Below, one piece after another: positions 31,351-64,000 of a DNA stretch of 64,000 nt (position 1 is its first letter; the number at the start of each line of letters is the position of its first letter). A program made the position numbers and the translations under genes. The stretch comes from Rhodocyclales bacterium (lineage in GTDB: Bacteria; Pseudomonadota; Gammaproteobacteria; Burkholderiales; Rhodocyclaceae), in NCBI GenBank assembly GCA_016235165.1, contig JACRLX010000022.1:1-64000 (forward strand). The letters run 5' to 3'. The notes beneath the pieces are model-generated. The model saw only the letters and a program-made list of their open reading frames with translations. It was not told the origin of the DNA and did no database searches.

Positions 31351-32961
31351 TCAATTCTTGCGGCGCGTGACGATGCGCAGCGTGCCGTGGCCGATGACAC
31401 CGAGCAGCGTCAGCAGGACGATGGTCCAGCCGGCGGTGTCGATCAGCCGGTTGTTGTCGCGGGCGGGAAGATACACCCCGGTGATGCCGGCCAGGCGGCT
31501 TTCCCGGGCATGGCATTCGACGCAGCCCATGGCTTTGTCCTTGGGCGCCACCATGTGGGTGATCGGCCAGGACATTTCGGTCTTGATGAAGTCGTACTTG
31601 CCCGAGTACGGCGTGCCGGAATCCTTCATGCCGACCGGAATCGCCTTGTCCCAATCCAGGTTCTTCCAGAAGCCGGTGTCGTCGTTGCCGGCGGTGTGCG
31701 GCGTGATCAGGGTCTTGTTCACCGGGTCGTAGGGCTGCGAACCACGGAACACCTTCATTGGCCAGATCATCGACTTGCCGTCGGCCGGGCTGCCGCCCAT
31801 GCGGTTGATCGGCGTGCGCTGCTCTGACTTCTCGATCTTGTCGGTCAGCAGCGTGTACTTCACCTCGCCGTTGAACCAGGCGTACTCGGGCTTGACGTTC
31901 TCGGCCAAGGTGAAGTCGCCCTTGCGCGATTCGTAGGTGATGCGGCCCTTGGCGTCCTTCAGCGTGATGTGCTTGCCGTCCTTGTCGCGCTTTCCGGCGG
32001 TGGACCAGTCCCAGGTTATCTTGGTGGCGATGCCGCCGCGGGCGTAAGTCGGGATGTGGCAGGTCTGGCAGGCGATCCTGGTCGCGTGCTGGTTGAGGCG
32101 TGCCTCCTTCTTGTGCGGGGCGTTGTCGTGGCAGGCGACGCAGGTGGCCGGGTTGCCGCTGCCAGCCTTGCCGCGCACCTGGATGCCCTTGTCGTCCTTC
32201 GCTGTGGGCGTATAGCGGCTGCCGGCGACATCATGGCTCGATGACTTGTGGCAGGTGCCGCAGGTGAAGTCGAGGCCCTCGGCATCCATATGCACATCAA
32301 TGGCCTTGGTCGGCGCGGCGAGCGAGGAATCCATGTCGCCGTGCTTGACGCCGTCGCCGCCGCCGCCGTTGAAGTGGCAGCTGCCGCAGGTGTCGCGGCT
32401 GGACTTGCCGACCTTCTGCGCGATCTTGGAAAGGTCGATGCCCTTGATGATCTTGCCCGAGCCGGGCGGGAACTCGGTGTCCCTGGTCACCGGGTTGCCG
32501 GCGAATCCGGGCGGCTTCCTGTAGTTGCCCGTGGTGTCATGGCAGACGATGCAATCGACGTTCTCTTCCTTCGAGAAATCGAAGTTGGCGTCCTTCCAGC
32601 CGTAGCCGACGTGGCAGGAGGTGCAGGAGGCGTAGTTGGAGGGAATCGAGATGCAGAAGTTGTTGAGCACTTTCTTCTTGCCCAGCACCTGTTTGGTGTC
32701 CGGGTTCATGAACTCCCACTTCCAGTGCTTGGTGCGGTGGATCTGGCCGGCGGCCTCGGTGTGGCATTCGAGGCAGGCCTTGGTGACCTCCGGACCGGAG
32801 TCGAAGGTCTTTTGCAGTTGCTTGAATTTTGTGTGGTCGGCCGTCGTCGTCAGCTTGACGGGCTTGGGTTCGGGCTTGGTTTCCTCAGCGTATGCTGGGC
32901 CTGAGGCCAGCCAGCTGGCGCAGCACAGTGCCAGTGTGGTCTTGATCAAACGGGTTTTCAT
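31351..32961 (-). CDS. Octaheme c-type cytochrome, tetrathionate reductase (OTR) family, membrane anchored
   Basis: Eight CxxCH motifs (CLECH, CTSCH, CIVCH, CGSCH, CGTCH, CVACH, CQTCH, CVECH), signal peptide, C-terminal TM helix. Confidence 0.87.
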   Translation of the reverse strand: MKTRLIKTTLALCCASWLASGPAYAEETKPEPKPVKLTTTADHTKFKQLQKTFDSGPEVTKACLECHTEAAGQIHRTKHWKWEFMNPDTKQVLGKKKVLNNFCISIPSNYASCTSCHVGYGWKDANFDFSKEENVDCIVCHDTTGNYRKPPGFAGNPVTRDTEFPPGSGKIIKGIDLSKIAQKVGKSSRDTCGSCHFNGGGGDGVKHGDMDSSLAAPTKAIDVHMDAEGLDFTCGTCHKSSSHDVAGSRYTPTAKDDKGIQVRGKAGSGNPATCVACHDNAPHKKEARLNQHATRIACQTCHIPTYARGGIATKITWDWSTAGKRDKDGKHITLKDAKGRITYESRKGDFTLAENVKPEYAWFNGEVKYTLLTDKIEKSEQRTPINRMGGSPADGKSMIWPMKVFRGSQPYDPVNKTLITPHTAGNDDTGFWKNLDWDKAIPVGMKDSGTPYSGKYDFIKTEMSWPITHMVAPKDKAMGCVECHARESRLAGITGVYLPARDNNRLIDTAGWTIVLLTLLGVIGHGTLRIVTRRKN

Positions 32962-53389: not shown

Positions 53390-53463
53390 TTCCTATTCAT
53401 CAAATCGGAAAATCGTCTTGGACAATCCATTTTTGATCCAACAAAATTGAATCATCAAGGTTT
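53390..53463. promoter_or_regulatory. Copy 1 of shared regulatory element (predicted LysR site plus promoter) upstream of cbiM-cynS
   Basis: ttcctattc-N5-atcggaaaatcgtcttggacaa-N15-acaaaatt..., ungapped match to 57698-57771. Confidence 0.85.
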
Positions 53464-53590
53464 AAAGCGTTGACGCGATGGGGCTCTCGTTTCTGGCAAG
53501 CCGGCGCCAGGCAATCGATTCGTAGTCTGTAAATGTCGCTGCCGTAAGCACGGCGGTATTGTTGCACTGCACTCAAGAGGAGAAGCAAGC

Positions 53591-54274
53591 ATGCATATCG
53601 AACCTGGCATCGTTGTCGGAGCCACCAAACTGGCCCTGGGTTACGCCACGGCCGCCGGCGCGATCGGCTATTCGGCCAAGCTCGCGCTGGATATGGCGAA
53701 AAAAGATGGTGTGGGTACCATGGCGGCCCGTACCTTGATCGCCGCGGCGCTGGTCCTGAGCTTCTTCGAGCTGTTGCCGCATTACCCGGTCGGGGTTTCC
53801 GAAGTACATTTCATCCTCGGCTCGACGCTGTTCCTGATGTTTGGCGCCGGTCCCGCCGCACTTGGCCTCGCCGCCGGGTTGCTGATTCAAGGCCTGTTGT
53901 TCGCGCCCGCCGACCTGCCTCAATTCGGCATGAATGTCACCAGCCTGCTGGTGCCCCTGCTGGCGGTCCACGCGCTTGCGGCCAGGATCATTCCCGCCAA
54001 TACCGCCTATACCGACGTCAGCTACGCCCAGGCGCTCAAGCTCTCGACTGCCTATCAGGGGGGCGTGGTGGCCTGGGTGGCCTTCTGGGCGTTTTATGGT
54101 GCCGGCTTTGGTGCCGAAAACCTGGCCAACGTTGCGGCATTCGGCGGTGCTTATCTGAGCGTGATCCTGATCGAACCTGTTCTCGACCTGGGCATGCTGG
54201 CCGTTGCCAAGACCCTGCGTTCGATGGAAAGCACCAAGCTGTTCCACGCCAGGATGTATCACCCCGCCATCTGA
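53591..54274 (+). CDS. CbiM-like energy-coupling-factor cobalt permease (solitary)
   Basis: MHIEPGIVVGATKLALGYATAAGAIGY..., N-terminal Met-His motif and polytopic CbiM-like sequence. Confidence 0.82.
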   Translation: MHIEPGIVVGATKLALGYATAAGAIGYSAKLALDMAKKDGVGTMAARTLIAAALVLSFFELLPHYPVGVSEVHFILGSTLFLMFGAGPAALGLAAGLLIQGLLFAPADLPQFGMNVTSLLVPLLAVHALAARIIPANTAYTDVSYAQALKLSTAYQGGVVAWVAFWAFYGAGFGAENLANVAAFGGAYLSVILIEPVLDLGMLAVAKTLRSMESTKLFHARMYHPAI

Positions 54275-54343
54275 TGGCGGATATGCGACGCGTCACCCCC
54301 ACCCCGCCCCACCTGCAAAAACTACAAATCAACGGAATCAGCA

Positions 54344-54785
54344 CATGAACAAAGCGGATATGAAAGATGCGATCCTCGATGCCAAGGACGCCAAGAAGCT
54401 CAAGTGGGCCGACATTGCCAACGCTGCCGGAGTCTCGCCGGAGTTCGTCTGTTCGGCCTGCCTGGGCATGAATCACCTGGAGAAAAAGCCGGCCGATGCT
54501 GTTGCCAAGGTGCTTGGCCTGGGCAAGGAGGTTTCGGCGGCCCTCCAGCGATTCCCGAAAAAGACCTGGACCCAGACCATTCCCACCGATCCGTTGATCT
54601 ATCGCTGGTATGAAATCGTCGGGGTCTATGGCGAAACCATCAAGGAAATCATCAACGAGAAGTTTGGTGACGGCATCATGAGTGCGATCGACTTCTCGAT
54701 GGATATTCAGAAGCAGGAAGATCCCAAGGGTGATCGCGTGGTGGTTACCCTGAACGGCAAGTTTTTGCCCTACAAGGCTTGGTAA
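54344..54785 (+). CDS. cynS: Cyanate hydratase (cyanase)
   Basis: MNKADMKDAILDAKDAKKLKWADIANAAGVSPEFVCSACLGMNHLEKKPADAVAKVLGL ... IPTDPLIYRWYEIVGVYGETIKEIINEKFGDGIMSAIDFSMDIQKQEDPKGDRVVVTLNGKFLPYKAW. Confidence 0.97.
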
Positions 54786-54808
54786 GCTTCCAGGTCAGAC
54801 TTGCAAAG

Positions 54809-54841
54809 AAAACCGGGTACCGCACTGCGGTCCCGGTTTTT
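54809..54841 (+). terminator. Intrinsic terminator after cynS
   Basis: aaaaccgggtaccgcactgcggtcccggttttt. Confidence 0.88.
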
Positions 54842-54894
54842 GCGTTCAATGGCGTAGCGCGACAGCGTCGATTTCGTCTGCGTGGGGACTATTC

Positions 54895-55728
54895 ATGACG
54901 GCGAAAGACCCACACAGATTTGTCAATGAACTTGACGCAGCAGCTATTGAGCGCCTGATTGCGCGGCTGGAGAGCCGCGCCAAGGACAAGGTTTTCACCC
55001 GACTGTTCGATCGTTACGCTGCCGAACTGATACCCGGGGCCGCGGGGCGCGTGCTGGAGGTGGGTTGCGGTACCGGGGCCACGTTGCGCGCCTTGGTGCG
55101 CCGTCCGGATTTCACGGGGCGGGCCGTCGGTGTTGATCAGAGTGCGGACTTCATCGCGGCTGCGCGCAAGTTTGTGGTGACCGAAGCCGTTGTCGACCGG
55201 GTCGAGTTCGATGTCGGCGATGCGCATCGGCTGGACTTTCCGGATGCCAGCTTCGATATCGTTTTTGCCCATACGCTGATCAGCCATGTCACCGATCCGC
55301 TGTCGGTGCTGTGCGAGATGGTGCGCGTTGTCAAACCCGGCGGCAAGCTGGCGATCTTCGATGGCGACTACGCTTCGATGACCTATGCCTTGCCGGACCA
55401 TGATCTTGGCCAGCGCCTGGATGCCGCCCTGGTCAAGGCCAGCTTCAACAACCCGCGCATCATGCGCGACCTGCCGCGAATGATGCCGGAGTTTGGGCTC
55501 AAGCTCGAATCGGCTTGGGGCGAGGCGGTGGTCGAGATCGGCAGCGGCAGTTACTTCAAATCCTTCGTCGAGACCTATGCTCCTTACATCGTCAAGGCCG
55601 GCTTCTTCCCGACGGAGGTGGTCGAGCCATGGCTGGCCGCCCAGATCAAGGCGATTGAGGATGGCACGTTCTTCGCCGCCTGCACCTATTACACTTACAT
55701 CGCCCGTCGCGTCCGGTCTTGCGGGTGA
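54895..55728 (+). CDS. Class I SAM-dependent methyltransferase
   Basis: RVLEVGCGTGATLRALV ... VVKPGGKLAIFDGDYASMTY. Confidence 0.88.
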   Translation: MTAKDPHRFVNELDAAAIERLIARLESRAKDKVFTRLFDRYAAELIPGAAGRVLEVGCGTGATLRALVRRPDFTGRAVGVDQSADFIAAARKFVVTEAVVDRVEFDVGDAHRLDFPDASFDIVFAHTLISHVTDPLSVLCEMVRVVKPGGKLAIFDGDYASMTYALPDHDLGQRLDAALVKASFNNPRIMRDLPRMMPEFGLKLESAWGEAVVEIGSGSYFKSFVETYAPYIVKAGFFPTEVVEPWLAAQIKAIEDGTFFAACTYYTYIARRVRSCG

Positions 55729-55770
55729 GTGGCCGCTGACCAGCGCGTGCCGGCGGCAAACGAGAGTGCC

Positions 55771-56658
55771 ATGAGCCCGGATTTTTTTATCGTCGATGTT
55801 TTTGCCGAGCGCGCCTACGCCGGCAATCCGCTTGCCGTTGTGCTTGGCGCCGAGCGACTGAGCGACGAAACCATGCAACTGCTGGCGGCCGAGACCAATT
55901 ACTCGGAAACTACCTTTGTTTATACCGATCCGGAGGCGAATGGCGGCTACCGGACCCGCCTGTTTACTCCGGCCAGGGAAATCGCCTTCGCCGGACATCC
56001 CATACTCGGCACGGCCTGGGTCATCGGCAGGCATCTCGCGGGCGCGGCAAAGGATCCGGTCAGGCTTAATCTCCAGGTCGGTGAAATACCAGTTTATTGC
56101 GAACGAAACGGGCATGGCCTGGAAACCCTGTGGTTTGACGCCCCGCCGATTAGCGCCGGCATCCAGTGTGATCCGGCAAGAATGGCCTTGGCGCTGGGGC
56201 TGGCAATGGATGACATCGACCTGCGTTACCCGGTTCAGGTCATGTCGGCCGGCACGGCAGCGGCGATAGTTCCATTGCGCAGCCTGGTGGCTTTGCGGCG
56301 TGCGCTGCTGGATCTGAAGGCCTACGCCGGATTGATGGCAGAGGGCTTTCCTCCGCTCACCTATCTGTTCTGCGCCGAAACCCGGTCATCGGACAATGAC
56401 TTGTCGGCGCGCTTTTTCTTCGATGCGCACGGCGTCAGGGAGGATCCCGCCACGGGTAACGGTGCGGCCTTTCTTGCCGGGTATTTGCGGATGCATGAGG
56501 TGTGTCCGCGCGAGAAACGTTCCTGGCGTATCGAGCAGGGCCACGAGGTGCGACGGCCGTCGCTGGTGCAAATACGTATCGGCACTGCCGCCGATCCCGG
56601 AATCCAGGTCGGCGGCGGCGTGCTTGCCGCTATACAGGGAAACTTGATTCCGGGCTGA
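55771..56658 (+). CDS. PhzF family isomerase
   Basis: FFIVDVFAERAYAGNPLAVVL ... LAAETNYSETTFV ... RLFTPAREIAFAGHPILGTAWV. Confidence 0.93.
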   Translation: MSPDFFIVDVFAERAYAGNPLAVVLGAERLSDETMQLLAAETNYSETTFVYTDPEANGGYRTRLFTPAREIAFAGHPILGTAWVIGRHLAGAAKDPVRLNLQVGEIPVYCERNGHGLETLWFDAPPISAGIQCDPARMALALGLAMDDIDLRYPVQVMSAGTAAAIVPLRSLVALRRALLDLKAYAGLMAEGFPPLTYLFCAETRSSDNDLSARFFFDAHGVREDPATGNGAAFLAGYLRMHEVCPREKRSWRIEQGHEVRRPSLVQIRIGTAADPGIQVGGGVLAAIQGNLIPG

Positions 56659-56680
56659 GCGCGGCAAGCCGACAGCCGGT

Positions 56681-57691
56681 TCAGGCGACCGCGACCCCGG
56701 CCTTGGGCATCGGTGCCGCTTTGCTTGCCATTCGGGACTTTCTGGCAGGCGGCTCGATTGGCTGGTCAGGCGAGATCGGCGCACGCCCAAAATTCCATTC
56801 GGCGGCAAGCTTGCCGAAGGCACGGCAAGCGGGGCTTTTGTAAGTTCCATGTGGACCGATCAGGGCAATCGTGTGGTGGGGCAGTTCCGGAACCAGGGGA
56901 ACGGCATACAGGCGCGGCAGTGTGCAGGCGATGGTGGTGGGCAGCACGGTGATCAGGCGTCCGAGCCGTACCGATTGCACCATCATGCTTAATGAGTTGG
57001 TTTCGACGGCGATCCTCGGGTGTGTGCCATGCTCCATGCAGTACAGGTCGAAGTGACGGCGCAGGGCAAAATTCTGGTTCAACATCACCAGCGGTTCCTG
57101 TGAGAGCACTTCGATTCCCATGGGTTCCTGGCGTCCGGCGAGTGCATGGTCCGCGCCTACCGCAAGGCTAAGGGGTTCCATGAACAGCGTGTGCAACTCG
57201 ATCTTGCTCGGTTCCACCTCGCTCTGCGTCGAGTGGGTAAAGGCAATCCCGGCATCCAGCGTACCGTCGGCCACGCCGGCCTCGATCTGGTCCTGTGACA
57301 TTTCCATGGCGCTGACCGCGATGCCGGGATATCTCGCGTTGAATTCATCAACCAGCGAAGTGGTCAGGTATTCGGTAATTGGCGTCATGCCCAGGCGCAG
57401 ATAACCGCGGCTGAGGTCTTCCAGGTCGACCACCGCGCGCTTGGCGGCATCGAGCTCCTCCAGGGCGCGTCGGGCATGACGCACATAGACCTCGCCGGCG
57501 TCTGTCAGGCGCACGTTGCGTCCGGACCGATCCAGCAACTGCGCGTCCAGGGCCTCCTCGAGCAGCTTGATCTGTTGCGACAGCGTCGGCTGTGAAACGT
57601 GCAGCGCTTCCGCGGCCCGCGTGAAGCTATGGTTTTCGGCGACCGAGAGCAGATAGCGGATCGAACGGGGAAACATCAGCTTCGAATGCAT
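56681..57691 (-). CDS. LysR-family transcriptional regulator (CynR-like), divergent from scn genes
   Basis: FPRSIRYLLSVAENHSFTRAAEALHVSQPTLSQQIKLLEEALDAQLLDRSGRNVRLTDAG. Confidence 0.93.
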   Translation of the reverse strand: MHSKLMFPRSIRYLLSVAENHSFTRAAEALHVSQPTLSQQIKLLEEALDAQLLDRSGRNVRLTDAGEVYVRHARRALEELDAAKRAVVDLEDLSRGYLRLGMTPITEYLTTSLVDEFNARYPGIAVSAMEMSQDQIEAGVADGTLDAGIAFTHSTQSEVEPSKIELHTLFMEPLSLAVGADHALAGRQEPMGIEVLSQEPLVMLNQNFALRRHFDLYCMEHGTHPRIAVETNSLSMMVQSVRLGRLITVLPTTIACTLPRLYAVPLVPELPHHTIALIGPHGTYKSPACRAFGKLAAEWNFGRAPISPDQPIEPPARKSRMASKAAPMPKAGVAVA

Positions 57692-57697
57692 AACCAA

Positions 57698-57771
57698 TTC
57701 CTATTCTGCGGATCGGAAAATCGTCTTGGACAAATTTGCTTGAATTCCACAAAATTTAACCATCAACGATT
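57698..57771. promoter_or_regulatory. Copy 2 of shared regulatory element in lysR-scn intergenic region
   Basis: ttcctattc-N5-atcggaaaatcgtcttggacaa-N15-acaaaatt..., about 56/74 identities to copy 1 without gaps (hand count). Confidence 0.85.
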
Positions 57772-57948
57772 TACCGGTTTCCTTGCCGGGCAAAACGACT
57801 GGCAATGATACGACTAAAGGCAAATTGTTGATGGCGATCCGGAATCTGAAAGCCAAGGCCCAAAAAAGCGCGGCTCGCTGCAATAGCGTTGAATGCAGGC
57901 TCGACTGCCGTGATTCCGAACGACAACAATTTAAGGAGAAGTCCAGCC

Positions 57949-58389
57949 ATGTCATCAAGTACCAGAGACGAAGTGCTGCGGCATTTGCAGGCGGTGGTTG
58001 AAATCGAGCCTCCAGTGCAGCAGACCGGCAAGGCAATCTATGCATCCGACCTCACCCACGAGATGTTCCGCGCCTACACCCGTTCGCCGCACGATGTTGG
58101 CGGTCAGGTAGATGTGCCGGTCGAGTGGACGGAAGAGGAGTCCGAGGCTTGGGGCTACCGGGCCTACGTCACCACGGAGTGTCTTGCTTGGCGCGGCGTT
58201 TGGTGTGCCGAAGAGCGGCGTCGCATGCAAAACGTCGATCTTGGCACGACCCAGTACCTGGGCCTGCCTTACTACGGCCGTTGGCTGCTTTCCGCGGCCC
58301 GAATCCTGGTGGAGGGGCATCACATCACCCTTACCGAACTCATCAACAAAATCGACGAGGTGAAAAAGCGCCATGAGCCAGCACGATAG
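57949..58389 (+). CDS. scnB: Thiocyanate hydrolase beta subunit
   Basis: LFRAYTRVPHDVGG-type motif (FRAYTRSPHDVGGQVDVPVEW), CLAWRGVWCAEERRR, YLGLPYYGRWLLSAARILVE; RBS aaggag at 57933. Confidence 0.93.
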   Translation: MSSSTRDEVLRHLQAVVEIEPPVQQTGKAIYASDLTHEMFRAYTRSPHDVGGQVDVPVEWTEEESEAWGYRAYVTTECLAWRGVWCAEERRRMQNVDLGTTQYLGLPYYGRWLLSAARILVEGHHITLTELINKIDEVKKRHEPAR

Positions 58390-58738
58390 AACCCATCACG
58401 CCAGGATCGCCACCGGCAAGGGCGATCCCCAATGTTTCGCGGGCACGGCCGGCGGACCGTCAAAGTTCAAGGTGGGTGATCGCGTTCGCATCAAGGACAT
58501 GCCGGACATCTTCTACACGCGCTGTCAGGTGTATACCCGTGGCGCGGTAGGCGAGGTTGCCGTCGTCACGCACGAGAGCCCGGCGCCGGAAGACGAGGCC
58601 TGGGGGCACGTCGATAAGTCCGAGTGGTTCTACATCGTGCGTTTCAAGCAAACGGATCTCTGGCCAGAGTATCCGGCGGCGTTTGCCAACGATACCTTGC
58701 AGACCGAGTTCTCCGAGCGTTGGCTCGAAGCGGTTTAA
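58373..58738 (+). CDS. scnA: Thiocyanate hydrolase alpha subunit
   Basis: DRTHHARIATGKGDPQCFAGTAG...FKVGDRVRIKDMPDIFYTRCQVYTRGAVGEV ... WFYIVRFKQTDLWPEYPAAFANDTLQTEFSERWLE. Confidence 0.93.
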   Translation: MSQHDRTHHARIATGKGDPQCFAGTAGGPSKFKVGDRVRIKDMPDIFYTRCQVYTRGAVGEVAVVTHESPAPEDEAWGHVDKSEWFYIVRFKQTDLWPEYPAAFANDTLQTEFSERWLEAV

Positions 58739-58773
58739 CCGGCCGATCGGCTCCAGAAAAGGAAGGGAATTTC

Positions 58774-59472
58774 ATGTCACACGATCACGATCACAACGCT
58801 CCGGCGCCGATGGTGGATGAAATCAGCGACTTCGAGGCGCTCGAAATAGCGGTTCGCGAAATCTGTATCGAGAAGGGCCTGTTCTCCGCCGAGGACCATC
58901 GCAAATTCACCGAATTTGCCGAGCACATCGGCCCCACCCCTGCGGCGCGCATGGTCGCCAAGGCCTGGCTCGACCCCGAGTACAAGAAGCTGGTGATGAC
59001 CGATGCCATCGCCGCCAGCAAGGCTGTCGGGGTCGATTACCTCAATCCGACGGGCTTTGGCACGCCCAGCGACTATACCGACCTGCGGGTCCTGGAAGAT
59101 ACGCCCAGCGTGCATCATGTTGTGGTTTGCACCCTGTGCTCGTGTTACCCGCGCCCGATCCTGGGCTTCCAGCCGGAGTGGTACCGGACACCTAACTATC
59201 GCCGTCGCCTGGTTCGCTGGCCGCGTCAGGTGCTGGCCGAATTCGGCCTGACCCTGCCGGCGGAGGTTGATGTTCGCGTCGAGGATTCCAACCAGAAGTG
59301 CCGCTTCATCGTCATGCCCGTGCGCCCGGCAGGCACCGAGGGCTGGACCGAGGACCAACTGACCGAGATTGTTACGCGCGATTGCCTGATCGGTGTCGCC
59401 CTGCCCAAGCCTGGCGTGACGTCGAACCTCGAATTGTCCGTGCATCACGCGGCGAAGCCGGCGCATCACTGA
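58774..59472 (+). CDS. scnC: Thiocyanate hydrolase gamma subunit (Co-type nitrile hydratase alpha-like)
   Basis: Co-site motif VVCTLCSCYPRPILGFQPEWYR; SNQKCRFIVMPVRPAGTEGWTEDQLTEIVTRDCLIGVALPKPG. Confidence 0.96.
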   Translation: MSHDHDHNAPAPMVDEISDFEALEIAVREICIEKGLFSAEDHRKFTEFAEHIGPTPAARMVAKAWLDPEYKKLVMTDAIAASKAVGVDYLNPTGFGTPSDYTDLRVLEDTPSVHHVVVCTLCSCYPRPILGFQPEWYRTPNYRRRLVRWPRQVLAEFGLTLPAEVDVRVEDSNQKCRFIVMPVRPAGTEGWTEDQLTEIVTRDCLIGVALPKPGVTSNLELSVHHAAKPAHH

Positions 59473-59486
59473 GACGAGGAGCCATC

Positions 59487-59942
59487 ATGGCCATACCCGA
59501 GAAAATGCACGCACCCGCCGACATGGCGGAGTGCGCGGCGAACTGGACGCCGGTCCCGCTGCTTGAGGAAATCAAGGAGCATGGGCGGGTCTGGGGCGAT
59601 CTGGCGGAGCAGTATGGGGTTACCAATCCCGATCCTCCCTGGAAAACCAGCCTCGACGGCATGTGTGAAGTCCTGGCGTCAGGGTCGTGTTCATCAATGG
59701 CGGCGGCCGAAAAGCGCTGGCTGGCCGGTGATGTGGCTCGCGACGCAATGGATGCGCCTTTGCCGCTGCTCGAGCGTCGCTGGGAAGAAGACGAACTGTC
59801 GGCCACGCTTTACCAGGATGTCCCCTTCCCGGAGCGTCAATTGCTTGCGCTGACGCATTCGCTGATCAAGCGTGGTCTGCTCGATCCGGAAATTTTGAAG
59901 CAGAGAATGAAGGAAGTACACGTGCGGCTCGCCGCCACCTAG
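59487..59942 (+). CDS. P15K-like cobalt activator / nitrile hydratase accessory-type protein
   Basis: 152 aa directly after scnC; C-terminal part resembles NHase accessory/beta N-region (FPERQLLALTHSLIKRGLLDPEILKQRMKEVHVRL). Confidence 0.75.
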   Translation: MAIPEKMHAPADMAECAANWTPVPLLEEIKEHGRVWGDLAEQYGVTNPDPPWKTSLDGMCEVLASGSCSSMAAAEKRWLAGDVARDAMDAPLPLLERRWEEDELSATLYQDVPFPERQLLALTHSLIKRGLLDPEILKQRMKEVHVRLAAT

Positions 59943-60132
59943 CAAGGACGTCGGAGAAGCGAGGTTTCGCGTTTCGCGAACTCGCCGTGTTGAGGCGCGG
60001 TGCCCGGAGGGCGGGCGCGCAAAAGGAAGTGTCCAGCAAGCGGAGCTGTCGATAGGGCGGCGCACCGGGTTTGTCCGGTCGCCGGCCCGGCCGATGGAGA
60101 CTCCAGAAAAACCAGTCACGGAGAAATGATCG

Positions 60133-60963
60133 GTGTCAATCAGAGGAGTCGAAATCAACATCCACGGCCTGGGCTACCGTTACAATACGCGCGGCAATCC
60201 CACGTTCACCAATCTTCAGCTTCAGTCGGGGCGCGGCGAGGCATTGGCAATCATCGGACGCTCCGGTTGCGGCAAGTCGACGTTGCTGCATATCATCGCC
60301 GGCCTCAATCGCCCGACGGAGGGCGTCATCGAATTCGATGGCAAGAAGGTCGATGGTCCGTCCTCGCGCTGGGTCATGATGTTCCAGGCGCCCCACCTCT
60401 ACCCCTGGATGAAGGTTTCCCAGAACGTCGGTGTCGGCTTGAAGTTTGCCGGTTGGCCTGAAAAGGAGAAGGCCGAGCGCGTCGCCGAGGCCCTGCGTCT
60501 GGTCGAACTGCAGGATTACGCCGACGTCAGCGTGCAGGATCTTTCCGGTGGTCAGCAGCAGCGGGTAGCTTTGGCGCGCTCCCTGGTGATGGAACCGGAA
60601 CTGCTGCTGCTGGACGAGCCATTTTCCGCGCTGGATGCCTTCACCCGTTCGTCACTGCAACGCGATGTACGCTCGATTGCCAAGAAACTCGGCTTCAACC
60701 TGATCATCGTTACCCACGATATTGACGAAGCCATCCTGATGGCCGACCGGGCGCTGATCATGGCTGGCGCGCCGGGCAAGATCGTCACCGAATTCGAGGT
60801 ACCGTTGCCGGATCCGCGCCAGCGTCAGGATCCGGCCGTTCAAGCCATGCGTTCGCGCCTGATGGATGCCTTTCACAGCGCAGCCGGCAAGCCGACGGGG
60901 GCGGACGCCCATGGCGAAGAGGGTGTCGATACCGATTCCGAAAGTGTTACACAGCATGCCTGA
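60133..60963 (+). CDS. ABC transporter ATP-binding protein, nitrate/sulfonate/taurine (NrtD/SsuB/TauB) type (GTG start)
   Basis: IIGRSGCGKSTLLHIIAGLNRPTEG ... DLSGGQQQRVALARSLVMEPELLLLDEPFSALDAFTR. Confidence 0.94.
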   Translation: MSIRGVEINIHGLGYRYNTRGNPTFTNLQLQSGRGEALAIIGRSGCGKSTLLHIIAGLNRPTEGVIEFDGKKVDGPSSRWVMMFQAPHLYPWMKVSQNVGVGLKFAGWPEKEKAERVAEALRLVELQDYADVSVQDLSGGQQQRVALARSLVMEPELLLLDEPFSALDAFTRSSLQRDVRSIAKKLGFNLIIVTHDIDEAILMADRALIMAGAPGKIVTEFEVPLPDPRQRQDPAVQAMRSRLMDAFHSAAGKPTGADAHGEEGVDTDSESVTQHA

Positions 60964-61004
60964 CCCGTTGCAGGTCAGCAGACCATTACCCTGAGGAGAT
61001 CTCC

Positions 61005-62339
61005 ATGTGCATACTTTGCGATTCGCTTGCTGGCAAACATCATCCCGCGGATGAGCCCCACAAGGACTACAGGAAGCATGGCGATGGCATTAGCGATCCG
61101 AATCTGGTGATCGAGTACGACCCCCTGTTCAGCAGCGTCCTCGGCACCGGCGTCAATCGCCGCGAGCTCCTCAAGTGGGGTAGCCTTGGCGCGCTGGCCG
61201 GTTTGGCGCCCACCTCGGCCACCTTTGCCCAGGAAAAGAAGTGGGATCCCACGGTGCGTATTGGTTACATCCCGATCACCGATGCCTCCGCCCTGCTGGT
61301 TGCGCATGAAATGGGCTTCTTCAAGAAGGAGGGCCTGGAGTCTGCGCCGCCCACCCTGATTCGCGGCTGGTCGCCCCTGGTCGAGGCCTTTTCGTCGCAC
61401 CGCTTCAATCTTGCCCACCTGCTGATTCCGGTACCGATCTGGATGCGCTATGGCAACAAGTTCCCGATCAAGATCACGGCGTGGAATCACACCAACGGAT
61501 CGGGCATCGTGGTCGGCAAGGATAGCGGCATCAACTCTCCCAAGGACTTCGGTGGCAAGCAGTTCGCCGTGCCCTTCTGGTATTCGATCCACAACATCAT
61601 TTCGCAAAAGATCATGCGCGATGCCGGCATCACGCCGGTGATCAAGCCGCAGGATGCCAAACTGGCGCCGAACGAATGCAACTTCATCGTACTCAACCCG
61701 CCGGACATGCCGCCGGCCCTGGCCGCCAAGTCGATCGACGGCTACTGCGTTGCCGAGCCCTTCAATGCGCTGGGTGAAGTGCGTGCCGGCGCCAAGATGT
61801 TGCGCATGACCGGCGACGTCTGGAAGGGACACCCCTGCTGCGTGGTGGTGATGCACGAACAGGACACCATGGACCCGGCACGCGCTGCCTGGGCGCAGGC
61901 GGTGCATAACGCCATCGTTGCCGCACAGATCCATCTGGTCGAGAATCGCGCCGCCATGGCCGAGATGCTTTCCAAGGATGGCAAGGGCTACCTGCCTTTC
62001 CCGAAGGAAGTTGTCGGCCGTGCCATGATGCTCTACGACATTCCTTATCCTGGCAATGCAGCGGCGATCAAGAACAAGGATTGGGGCATGGATCGCATCA
62101 ACTTCCAGGGCTGGCCCTACCGTTCGGCCACCGAACTGGTGGTCAGCGATTTGAAGAAGACCATGATCACCGGCGACGCCGGTTTCCTGGAGAAGCTCGA
62201 TCCCAAGTTCGTTGCCAACGACCTGGTCAATTACAGCTTCATCAAGAAGGCGTTGGACGCGAATCCGAAGTGGAAGAACGACCATAGCGTGCCGAAGTCC
62301 GGCGATCCCTTCACCCGCACCGAAACCATCGTCCTATGA
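61005..62339 (+). CDS. NrtA/SsuA-like ABC substrate-binding protein with Cys/His N-extension and Tat motif
   Basis: MCILCDSLAGKHHPADEPHKDYRKH...NRRELLKWGSLGALAGLAPTSATFAQ, VRIGYIPITDASALLVAHEMGFFKKEGLE. Confidence 0.9.
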   Translation: MCILCDSLAGKHHPADEPHKDYRKHGDGISDPNLVIEYDPLFSSVLGTGVNRRELLKWGSLGALAGLAPTSATFAQEKKWDPTVRIGYIPITDASALLVAHEMGFFKKEGLESAPPTLIRGWSPLVEAFSSHRFNLAHLLIPVPIWMRYGNKFPIKITAWNHTNGSGIVVGKDSGINSPKDFGGKQFAVPFWYSIHNIISQKIMRDAGITPVIKPQDAKLAPNECNFIVLNPPDMPPALAAKSIDGYCVAEPFNALGEVRAGAKMLRMTGDVWKGHPCCVVVMHEQDTMDPARAAWAQAVHNAIVAAQIHLVENRAAMAEMLSKDGKGYLPFPKEVVGRAMMLYDIPYPGNAAAIKNKDWGMDRINFQGWPYRSATELVVSDLKKTMITGDAGFLEKLDPKFVANDLVNYSFIKKALDANPKWKNDHSVPKSGDPFTRTETIVL

Positions 62340-63181
62340 GCAATCAAGCCACATCCGGAGCGGCCACGGCCGCTTCCGGTGTGACCGGCGGCGCGGGCGC
62401 ACGCTATGCAATGGCGGCGTCCCGCGGTACCGCCAACTTCGTGCTCGGCCTGCTGATCCTCGCCGTACTGTGGGGGATAGGCGGTTACATGATTGCAAGC
62501 AATCCGAAGACGGCCAACTTTTCCGGCTTCGGCTTGCTGCCTACGCTGCAAGCCTTCCCCGAGTTGTGGGACATGGGCAAGTTGCAGAAGGCGACTTACG
62601 CCAGTGGCTATCGCCTTGCTTCGGGCATGCTGATTGCAATTCTGATCGGGGTGCCGCTGGGCATCCTCATGGGACGCGTGCAGTGGTTCCGCAAGCTCAG
62701 CAACTCGCCCTTCCAGTTGCTGCGGATGATCAGCCCCCTGTCCTGGATGCCGATTGCGGTCCTGGTTTTTTCTTCCTGGGACGGTTCGATCGTTTTCCTG
62801 GTGGCCTTTGCCTCGGTCTGGCCCGTGATGTACCAGACCGCAGCGGGACTGGCCAAGGTCGATCCTGCATGGTTCAAGGTGGCGCGCAATCTGGGTGCAA
62901 GCCAGGCGCAAATGCTGACGCAAATCATCCTGCCGGCGATCAGCTTCGACATCTTTACCGGAATTCGGCTTGCGCTTGGCGTAGCCTGGGTGGTGCTGGT
63001 ACCGGCCGAGCTGCTGGGAGTGACGTCCGGCCTTGGCTATGCGATCAAGGATGCGCGTGAAACCCTGGCCTACGACCACCTGACGGCAATGGTGCTGACC
63101 ATCGGCATCATCGGTTATGCGCTCGATACCATCTGCGCACAGTTGATCAAGAAGTTCAGCTGGCATCGCGGAGACGTGTGA
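62336..63181 (+). CDS. ABC transporter permease (NrtB/SsuC type), paralog 1
   Basis: FQLLRMISPLSWMPIAVLVFSSWDGSIVFLVAFASVWPVMYQTAAGLAKVDPAWFKVARNLGAS. Confidence 0.93.
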   Translation: MSNQATSGAATAASGVTGGAGARYAMAASRGTANFVLGLLILAVLWGIGGYMIASNPKTANFSGFGLLPTLQAFPELWDMGKLQKATYASGYRLASGMLIAILIGVPLGILMGRVQWFRKLSNSPFQLLRMISPLSWMPIAVLVFSSWDGSIVFLVAFASVWPVMYQTAAGLAKVDPAWFKVARNLGASQAQMLTQIILPAISFDIFTGIRLALGVAWVVLVPAELLGVTSGLGYAIKDARETLAYDHLTAMVLTIGIIGYALDTICAQLIKKFSWHRGDV

Positions 63182-63182
63182 G

Positions 63183-64000
63183 ATGAGTAGCAACGCAGCC
63201 ACGCTGGCAAACCCTTCAACGCAGTCGCGTTCTTCCGCCGCCTTGGGCAGTGCGGCTTCCGGCCTTGCTTACTTCGTGGCAGGCCTCGCAATCCTGATCG
63301 GATTGTGGTGGCTGGCGATCTATATTGCGACGAAGAACCCCGCTTTGTCACAGTTCGCCAACTTCGGACCGGTGCCCGCCTTCAAGGCCATACCCCATAT
63401 GTGGGACAACGGGCTGATTCCGAAGGCCTTGCAATCGAGCGGTTACCGGCTGGGCATGGGCCTGCTGATTGCGATCGCCATTGGGGTACCGATCGGCATC
63501 GTCATGGGGCGCAACAAGCGCTTCCGCGACTTGACCAATTCCCCGTTCCAGTTGATGCGCATGATCAGCCCCCTGTCCTGGGAGCCGATCGCCGTTATCG
63601 TGTTTGCCGGCTGGGATTCGGCCATCATTTTCCTGATTGCCATCGCCGCCGTGTGGCCAATCATGTTCTCGACCGCCGCTGGATTGGCCAAGGTTGATCC
63701 GGCATGGTTCAAGGTTGCCCGCAACCTTGGCGCCAAACCCTGGCAACTGGTGACCGAGATCATCATTCCAGCCATCATGTTCGACGTGGTCACGGGTATC
63801 CGGCTGGCTGTCGGCGTGGCCTGGATCGTGTTGGTGCCCGCCGAGTTTCTTGGCGTCACGTCCGGTTTCGGCTACACCATCGAGGATGCGCGCGAGTCGC
63901 TTGAGTATGAACACTTGATGGCCATGCTGCTGGTGATCGGTGCCGTCGGCTATGTACTCGACAGTATTTGCATGGTCTTGATCAAGCGCTATAGCTGGCA
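63183..64000 (+). CDS. ABC transporter permease (NrtB/SsuC type), paralog 2, truncated by window end
   Basis: FQLMRMISPLSWEPIAVIVFAGWDSAIIFLIAIAAVWPIMFSTAAGLAKVDPAWFKVARNLGAK; no stop before 64000. Confidence 0.92.
   Translation, partial: MSSNAATLANPSTQSRSSAALGSAASGLAYFVAGLAILIGLWWLAIYIATKNPALSQFANFGPVPAFKAIPHMWDNGLIPKALQSSGYRLGMGLLIAIAIGVPIGIVMGRNKRFRDLTNSPFQLMRMISPLSWEPIAVIVFAGWDSAIIFLIAIAAVWPIMFSTAAGLAKVDPAWFKVARNLGAKPWQLVTEIIIPAIMFDVVTGIRLAVGVAWIVLVPAEFLGVTSGFGYTIEDARESLEYEHLMAMLLVIGAVGYVLDSICMVLIKRYSW

What the first reader, a model, noticed from the sequence alone, without database searches (positions are those of the whole stretch)
53390..64000. Complete thiocyanate/cyanate catabolic island: Co supply, cyanase, LysR switch, scnBAC, activator and a dedicated ABC importer
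Seen: CbiM-like permease, cynS, methyltransferase, PhzF-like, divergent LysR, scnB-scnA-scnC, P15K-like protein, and a co-directional NrtA/SsuA-like ABC system (ATPase, binding protein, two permeases). Established: thiocyanate hydrolase is a Co(III) enzyme of the nitrile hydratase family converting SCN- to COS and NH3, and cyanase degrades cyanate. Inference: the ABC system imports SCN- and/or OCN-, and the CbiM-like protein supplies cobalt for ScnC maturation. Parts of such clusters are known from Thiobacillus-type organisms; the co-located regulator, cobalt permease and importer make this a testable complete pathway.
Basis: partly seen in the sequence, partly recalled or inferred. Interest (0 to 1): 0.9.

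Follow-up and report, generated by a model that had tools for sequence, protein, structure and literature searches.

The report
Known thiocyanate-degradation gene island
This betaproteobacterium carries a published type of gene island that imports and breaks down the pollutant thiocyanate; comparing about 80 relatives shows that its metal-supply and import genes are swapped for unrelated proteins of the same presumed job, which supports the guessed roles, although the enzyme that consumes the toxic gas it makes is not in the island.

Summary
ScnB, ScnA and ScnC match the three chains of Thiobacillus thioparus thiocyanate hydrolase (2dd4) far better than any nitrile hydratase. The LysR gene passes NCBI's CynR cut-off.

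The island is not new. Berben et al. 2017 (PMC5328954) describe the same layout in T. thioparus DSM 505. It also runs on past the window into DsrE, TusA, a type III sulfide:quinone reductase and a conserved small protein.

New here, from 81 ScnC loci. (1) The cobalt slot holds one of five systems (solitary CbiM-like, CbtAB, HupE/UreJ, NiCoT, CbiM-type ECF), never two. (2) Of 48 proteobacterial loci with the ABC importer none has an FNT anion channel; the three uncut loci without it all have one. (3) The binding protein's closest relatives all lie in scn islands; half of the next group lie near cyanase.

"Complete" is too strong: the island has no COS hydrolase, and the genome's only beta-carbonic anhydrase is ordinary. 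Cyanase is off the main route. Methyltransferase and PhzF roles are unknown.

The parts
53591..54274 (+). solitary CbiM-like membrane protein, presumed cobalt importer; keeps the N-terminal Met1-His2 (MHIEPG) and His73 in SEVHFILG
   Evidence: PF01891 59 bits; residues invariant in aligned homologues; no CbiQ in the genome; slot taken by unrelated Co/Ni transporter families in other loci
54345..54785 (+). cynS, cyanase
   Evidence: TIGR00673/NF002773 above cut-off; the only PF02560 match in the genome
54895..55728 (+). class I SAM-dependent methyltransferase of unknown substrate
   Evidence: PF08241 88 bits; NCBIfam models all below cut-off; in 34 of 53 proteobacterial scn loci
55771..56658 (+). 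PhzF-family isomerase, role unknown
   Evidence: TIGR00654 195 bits; in 25 of 53 proteobacterial scn loci
56681..57697 (-). CynR-type LysR regulator, divergent from scnB
   Evidence: NF008416 CynR equivalog 358 bits, cut-off 277; in 50 of 53 proteobacterial loci
57698..57948 (.). 251-bp divergent intergenic region, presumed CynR-controlled promoter of scnB
   Evidence: position between divergent genes; no binding site tested
57949..58389 (+). scnB, thiocyanate hydrolase beta subunit (split NHase-beta N-terminal half)
   Evidence: 183 bits to 2dd4_B, aligned 1-141 to 1-141, no other PDB hit
58373..58738 (+). scnA, thiocyanate hydrolase alpha subunit (split NHase-beta C-terminal half)
   Evidence: 168 bits to 2dd4_A against 39 bits to the best nitrile hydratase
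58774..59472 (+). scnC, thiocyanate hydrolase gamma subunit with Co-type motif V-C119-T-L-C-S-C
   Evidence: TIGR03887 383 bits, cut-off 291; TIGR01323 nitrile hydratase 210 bits, below its cut-off 250; 387 bits to 2dd4_C against 194 to the best nitrile hydratase; motif position
59487..59942 (+). P15K-like activator
   Evidence: no family hit; homologue directly after scnC in 52 of 53 proteobacterial and 28 of 28 actinobacterial loci; aligned
60133..60963 (+). ABC ATPase of the NitT/TauT type
   Evidence: PF00005; best NCBIfam model TIGR01184 ntrCD 203 bits, below its cut-off 292
61005..62339 (+). substrate-binding protein with twin-arginine signal (NRRELLKW); presumed SCN-/OCN- receptor; invariant C278-C279
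   Evidence: PF13379 128 bits; alignment A1; profile alignment to NrtA; relatives confined to scn islands and, further off, to a cluster often with cynS
62336..63181 (+). ABC permease 1
   Evidence: PF00528 79 bits
63183..64000 (+). ABC permease 2 (gene ends at contig position 64007, 7 bases past the window)
   Evidence: PF00528 77 bits; end seen in L002

Best explanation
This is a member of the known proteobacterial scn island for lithotrophic and/or nutritional use of thiocyanate by the COS pathway. A CynR-like LysR protein (effector probably cyanate or thiocyanate) controls two co-directional gene blocks. The NitT/TauT-type ABC importer brings in SCN- (and/or OCN-). The solitary CbiM-like protein brings in cobalt, P15K loads it into ScnC, and ScnABC hydrolyses SCN- to COS and NH3. 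COS is hydrolysed to H2S and CO2 by an enzyme outside the island, and H2S is oxidised by the SQR-DsrE-TusA module just beyond the window. Cyanase clears cyanate taken up with, or formed alongside, thiocyanate. Shown here: gene identities, family memberships, conservation of order, and replacement of the transporters by unrelated families. Inferred: every substrate, the regulation, the cobalt delivery and the flux.
For: Thiocyanate hydrolase identity of all three subunits. Island order conserved in known thiocyanate degraders, T. thioparus DSM 505 (L036) and Thiohalophilus thiocyanatoxydans (L064), and in Thiobacillus, Thiocapsa, Thiodiazotropha and Sulfuritalea loci; same layout published (PMC5328954). 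Cobalt slot: of 53 proteobacterial loci 27 have the CbiM-like gene, 9 CbtA/CbtB, 7 HupE/UreJ, 1 NiCoT and 2 a canonical CbiM-type ECF system, none has two, and 7 have none, of which 4 are cut contigs; in five loci hupE sits exactly between cynR and cynS where cbiM otherwise is. Importer: 48 loci with the ABC have no FNT channel, the 3 uncut loci without it all do (Fisher p = 5e-5, relatedness ignored). Binding protein: in 369 sampled genomes of the class all 8 matches of 63% identity or more lie in scn islands; of 10 matches at 47-56% five have cynS within the fetched flank. Nitrate-contacting K269 of NrtA aligns with invariant C279 (role of K269/H196 from PMC8786288). The genome has dsrA (511 bits), so a sulfide-oxidation route is plausible.
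Against: No substrate has been measured. No COS hydrolase orthologue in this genome: its only beta-carbonic anhydrase matches ordinary enzymes (292 bits for a single-domain one) and COSase 3vqj at only 23 bits. The CbiM-like protein is below every NCBIfam CbiM cut-off and has no CbiQ partner. The binding-protein model is mediocre (mean pLDDT 66), so no pocket could be read from it.
Confidence: 0.85

Rival explanations
1. The ABC importer serves cyanate, not thiocyanate: the regulator is CynR-like and cyanase is next door, while SCN- enters by another route.
For: LysR passes the CynR equivalog cut-off; second-nearest binding proteins sit near cynS without scn in 5 of 10 cases.
Against: The nearest binding-protein group is confined to scn islands (8 of 8), and the ABC is kept in scn loci in which no cynS was found (L015, L022, L081).
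Confidence: 0.3
2. The ABC importer is a nitrate, bicarbonate or sulfonate/taurine system that merely lies next to scn.
For: Best solved relatives are NrtA, CmpA, SsuA and an S. aureus zinc-bound protein; subfamily names are nitrate, SsuA and taurine.
Against: All curated scores are far below cut-off; nitrate-contacting K269 and Q155 positions are C279 and S166 here (Q155 as a ligand is from memory); linkage to scn in 48 of 53 loci and an FNT anion channel instead in the three uncut loci without it.
Confidence: 0.07
3. The sulfur leaves partly as H2S with cyanate (through a thiocarbamate intermediate) instead of COS, so that cyanase plus SQR replaces COS hydrolase.
For: cynS in 42 of 53 and SQR in 43 of 53 proteobacterial loci; a COSase orthologue of 76% identity or more in only 4 of 50 searched scn genomes; some scn genomes show no beta-carbonic anhydrase at all.
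Against: COS and ammonia are the reported products of the T. thioparus enzyme (PMC5328954, PMC6504805); 3 of the 4 COSase genomes also have cynS in the island, so cyanase does not stand in for COSase; ordinary beta-carbonic anhydrases also degrade COS (PMC5745022); several of the genomes are incomplete MAGs.
Confidence: 0.08
4. The CbiM-like protein is not a cobalt importer but a companion of unknown role.
For: Below NCBIfam CbiM cut-offs; no CbiQ in this genome and no strong CbiQ in 23 of 25 others with it.
Against: Passes Pfam CbiM and keeps Met1-His2 and His73; replaced by four other Co/Ni transporter systems, never together with one.
Confidence: 0.1

Closest known systems
scn island of Thiobacillus thioparus DSM 505 (PMC5328954, Fig. 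3; locus L036 here)
   Same: CbiM-like single cobalt subunit, cyanase, methylase, scnBAC, P15K, four NitT/TauT ABC genes, DsrE, TusA, SQR, small conserved protein, same order
   Different: here cynR lies between phzF and scnB and diverges from scnB, splitting the genes into two co-directional blocks, and phzF follows the methyltransferase; T. thioparus also has a COSase (L090), this genome does not
Thiocyanate hydrolase of T. thioparus THI115 (PDB 2dd4, 2zzd, 3vyg)
   Same: three separate subunits, Co-type VCTLCSC motif, 168-387 bits to the three chains
   Different: no activity or metal content measured here
Thiohalophilus thiocyanatoxydans scn locus (L064)
   Same: same block from cynR to SQR
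   Different: HupE/UreJ instead of the CbiM-like protein
NrtABCD/CmpABCD importers of cyanobacteria
   Same: NitT/TauT fold of binding protein and ATPase
   Different: two separate permease genes, K269 of NrtA replaced by Cys, about 15-20% identity
Carbonyl sulfide hydrolase of T. thioparus (3vqj)
   Same: expected next enzyme of the pathway
   Different: absent from this genome by beta-CA family search

Membership tests
Thiocyanate hydrolase (SCNase) | ScnC above the SCNase model and not above the nitrile hydratase model | tested here: met
   TIGR03887 383 bits > 291; TIGR01323 210 bits < 250
Thiocyanate hydrolase (SCNase) | beta chain of nitrile hydratase split into two genes, scnB (N half) and scnA (C half) | tested here: met
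   PF21006 in ScnB, PF02211 in ScnA; 2dd4_B and 2dd4_A best hits
Thiocyanate hydrolase (SCNase) | Co-type claw motif VCTLCSC in the gamma subunit | tested here: met
   identical in the alignment to 2dd4_C
Thiocyanate hydrolase (SCNase) | SCN- hydrolysis to COS and NH3, Co(III) with oxidised cysteines | not testable with these tools
   needs enzyme assay and structure
Proteobacterial scn island of the T. thioparus type | scnBAC-P15K-ABC-DsrE-TusA-SQR in one direction, cobalt transporter, cyanase and methylase nearby | tested here: met
   against PMC5328954
COS pathway with dedicated COS hydrolase | COSase orthologue in the genome | tested here: not met
   single beta-CA, ordinary type; 3vqj only 23 bits
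CbiMNQO ECF cobalt transporter | CbiQ and CbiO partners | tested here: not met
   no PF02361 match in the genome; CbiO was not searched for. So it is a solitary CbiM-like protein, not an ECF system
NrtA-type nitrate importer | basic ligand residues K269 and H196 | tested here: not met
   K269 position is Cys279; His196 appears kept by the S-x-H-N motif, read by eye
CynR LysR regulator | score above the CynR equivalog cut-off | tested here: met
   NF008416 358 bits > 277; effector not testable

The most novel reading that the evidence does not exclude
The island defines a thiocyanate-specific importer family (ABC type with a Cys-Cys binding protein, interchangeable with an FNT channel) and a solitary CbiM-like cobalt carrier that works without an ECF module; in most carriers COS is consumed by an enzyme not yet identified, possibly one of the unassigned conserved island genes (methyltransferase, small protein after SQR) or an ordinary carbonic anhydrase.
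Probability: 0.25. Interest if true: 0.6.

Novelty: new member of a known kind. Interest (0 to 1): 0.38.

Why it matters
I found no paper that characterises a thiocyanate importer. The replacement patterns give two independent, testable predictions: ABC and FNT proteins carry the same small anion, and five unrelated systems deliver cobalt to the same enzyme. The lack of a recognisable COS hydrolase in most island carriers raises the question whether such bacteria emit COS or use another enzyme, which bears on thiocyanate remediation and on COS budgets.

Tried and rejected
Nitrile hydratase reading of scnC: rejected by model and PDB scores. CbiM as part of an ECF system: no CbiQ. Cyanase as substitute for COSase: 3 of 4 COSase genomes also carry cynS. 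Clean empty site: four scn-free genomes of the genus align only up to about 53250, just past argB, but the genes after argB there include aspS, which lies on another contig here (C17), so the junction is rearranged and not a simple insertion. AlphaFold model of the binding protein: 91 low-confidence N-terminal residues, mean pLDDT 66; Foldseek finds only the NrtA/CmpA/SsuA fold class, so it did not settle the ligand. Methyltransferase: PDB and NCBIfam hits are generic. N-terminal CxxC of the binding protein: not conserved across loci, dropped. The 'DUF1641' label I first used for the small protein after SQR is not supported by Pfam. The sequence search of the CbiM-like protein against the PDB found nothing. 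The organism was not formally typed; nearest named loci are Rhodocyclales and Sulfuritalea MAGs.
Full report
WHAT IS THERE. From left to right: CbiM-like (53591-54274), cynS (54345-54785), methyltransferase (54895-55728), phzF (55771-56658), a LysR gene on the other strand (56681-57697), scnB (57949-58389), scnA (58373-58738), scnC (58774-59472), P15K-like (59487-59942), ABC ATPase (60133-60963), binding protein (61005-62339), permease 1 (62336-63181) and permease 2 (63183-64007, cut by the window end). Family scans support each except the P15K-like protein, which neither library covers; its position after scnC in 52 of 53 proteobacterial and all 28 actinobacterial loci identifies it. The contig goes on past the window, and four more genes in the same direction belong to the island: DsrE-like, TusA, a type III sulfide:quinone reductase-like protein and a conserved 144-aa protein. 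The intergenic region between the LysR gene and scnB is 251 bp.

THIOCYANATE HYDROLASE, NOT NITRILE HYDRATASE. ScnC scores 383 bits against the thiocyanate hydrolase model (cut-off 291) and 210 against nitrile hydratase alpha (cut-off 250). Against the PDB it scores 387 bits to the gamma subunit of the T. thioparus enzyme and 194 to the best nitrile hydratase, with an identical VCTLCSCY motif. ScnB has a single PDB hit, the beta subunit (183 bits), and ScnA has 168 bits to the alpha subunit against 39 for the best nitrile hydratase.

THE ISLAND IS ALREADY PUBLISHED. Berben et al. 2017 (PMC5328954) describe for T. thioparus DSM 505: cobalt-transporter subunit, cyanase, methylase, scnABC, a hypothetical protein, four NitT/TauT ABC genes, DsrE/F-like, TusA, SQR and another hypothetical protein, and note a different cobalt uptake system in Thioalkalivibrio thiocyanodenitrificans. 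Kantor et al. 2015 is cited for a conserved operon in bioreactor Thiobacillus (PMC5458468; the 2015 paper itself was not read). A search of the genome collection gave 80 ScnC loci; with the window's own they are 53 proteobacterial and 28 actinobacterial. The block is conserved in Thiobacillus, Thiohalophilus, Thiocapsa, Thiodiazotropha, Sulfuritalea and others; the actinobacterial loci hold only scnBAC and P15K. In this lineage cynR lies between phzF and scnB; in Thiobacillus it lies upstream of cbiM.

THE COBALT SLOT. Of the 53 proteobacterial loci 27 carry the solitary CbiM-like gene, 9 CbtA/CbtB (TIGR02458, PF09490, PF09489), 7 HupE/UreJ (PF04955), 1 a NiCoT (L057, PF03824) and 2 a canonical CbiM with other ECF parts (L045, L006). 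No locus has two of these, except that the ECF locus L045 also holds a NicO-family gene beside its CbiMQO genes. Seven have none: L007, L008, L012 and L070 are cut contigs, and L017, L019 and L068 seem to lack one. In L031, L046, L050, L064 and L067 hupE sits exactly where cbiM sits in the others, between cynR and cynS. These families are known or predicted Ni/Co transporters (PMC2667541, for Cbi/NikMNQO, NiCoT and HupE/UreJ; CbtAB by its Pfam and NCBIfam names). The CbiM-like protein keeps Met1-His2 and a His in SEVHFILG, the positions that bind metal in NikM/CbiM (from memory), but there is no CbiQ in the genome and strong CbiQ matches in only 2 of 25 other genomes that carry it, both Thiocapsa; a third, G005, has a marginal match at the cut-off. 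It probably works alone.

THE IMPORTER. In 369 sampled genomes of the class the binding protein has 18 matches at E <= 1e-40 in 17 genomes. The 8 closest (63% or more, its own included) all lie in scn islands. The other 10 (47-56%) do not; several of them sit in a recurring cluster with a sigma-54-type regulator, OsmC, an acyl-CoA-dehydrogenase-like flavoprotein and a rubredoxin/FAD oxidoreductase, and five have cynS within the fetched flank. Of the 53 loci 48 have the ABC binding protein and none of these has an FNT channel; L017, L019 and L068, the only uncut loci without the ABC, all carry an FNT homologue (PF01226, about 139 bits; 83-94% identical to each other). Fisher's test gives 5e-5 but ignores relatedness, and L017 and L019 are close. 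FNT channels carry monovalent anions such as formate, nitrite and hydrosulfide (PMC5525234 abstract). By profile alignment NrtA W102 aligns with W122, Q155 with S166 and K269 with C279, all three invariant on our side in 25 sequences. K269 and H196 as nitrate contacts are from PMC8786288; W102 and Q155 are from memory. The chain-to-NrtA numbering offset (29) is my inference from matching residues. Together this argues against nitrate and for SCN- and/or OCN-; the data do not separate these two.

WHAT IS MISSING. The COS pathway needs COS hydrolysis. T. thioparus DSM 505 has a COSase (L090, 384 bits over all 219 residues of 3vqj). The window's genome (99.99% complete) has one beta-carbonic anhydrase, at contig 13, 109933-110385, which matches ordinary carbonic anhydrases at up to 462 bits (292 for a single-domain enzyme) and COSase at 23. 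Of 50 searched scn genomes only 4 have a COSase of 76% identity or more; 14 others have weaker relatives at 41-64% and one a marginal match at 27%; none of the close relatives L003-L007, L010, L011, L013 and L014 has any. Five of 14 scn genomes show no beta-carbonic anhydrase, with the caution that several are MAGs. Ordinary beta-carbonic anhydrases also degrade COS (PMC5745022), so the genome's own enzyme may suffice. Cyanase is in 42 of 53 loci but does not replace COSase, since 3 of the 4 COSase genomes have both.

SETTING. In 200 genomes of the family only 3 have a ScnC above the cut-off, 2 of them among 6 genomes of the genus. In four scn-free genomes of the genus similarity stops at about 53250, just past argB, while a sister species (L145) carries the whole island at the same place. 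Other Sulfuritalea loci carry it without argB beside it (L010, L013, L014). The genome has dsrA. A patchily held trait, gained or lost often, of a sulfur-oxidising betaproteobacterium is the simplest reading. Nap-type genes follow the island directly (names by eye).

VERDICT. Real, well supported, and mostly known. The added value is the comparative test of the transporter roles and the missing COS step. Interest 0.38.

Noticed in passing
contig 13, 64080-66391 (L002 14080-16391), just past the window: DsrE-like, TusA, type III SQR-like and a conserved 144-aa protein without Pfam family complete the island; same order in more than 40 scn loci.
   Followed up: yes
L017 1739-2674, L019 1966-2901, L068 6936-7850: FNT-family channel in exactly the uncut proteobacterial scn loci that lack the ABC importer.
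   Followed up: partly
L127-L132, around the binding-protein relative: A recurring cluster with a NitT/TauT ABC, sigma-54-type GAF regulator, OsmC, acyl-CoA-dehydrogenase-like protein, rubredoxin/FAD oxidoreductase and often cynS, substrate unknown.
   Followed up: partly
L017, L019, L033, L048, L125 (second scnB-scnA pair): Extra scnB-scnA copies without an scnC of their own beside or opposite the main operon.
   Followed up: no
L006 5952-7187, L057 7518-8819, L068 1920-3212: A glycolate-oxidase-GlcF-like iron-sulfur protein (by eye) recurs beside scn islands; a cluster of such proteins occurs in 24 loci.
   Followed up: no
window 1-38000 against 38001-64000: G+C is about 0.62-0.70 in the first part and about 0.59-0.66 in the second, which holds the island at about 0.60.
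   Followed up: no
window 31351-32961: A 536-aa protein that looks like a multihaem cytochrome (CLECHTE motif seen by eye).
   Followed up: no
contig 13, 109933-110385 (L083): Ordinary beta-carbonic anhydrase that appears fused to an N-terminal GNAT-like domain in this lineage (ORF of 389 aa).
   Followed up: partly
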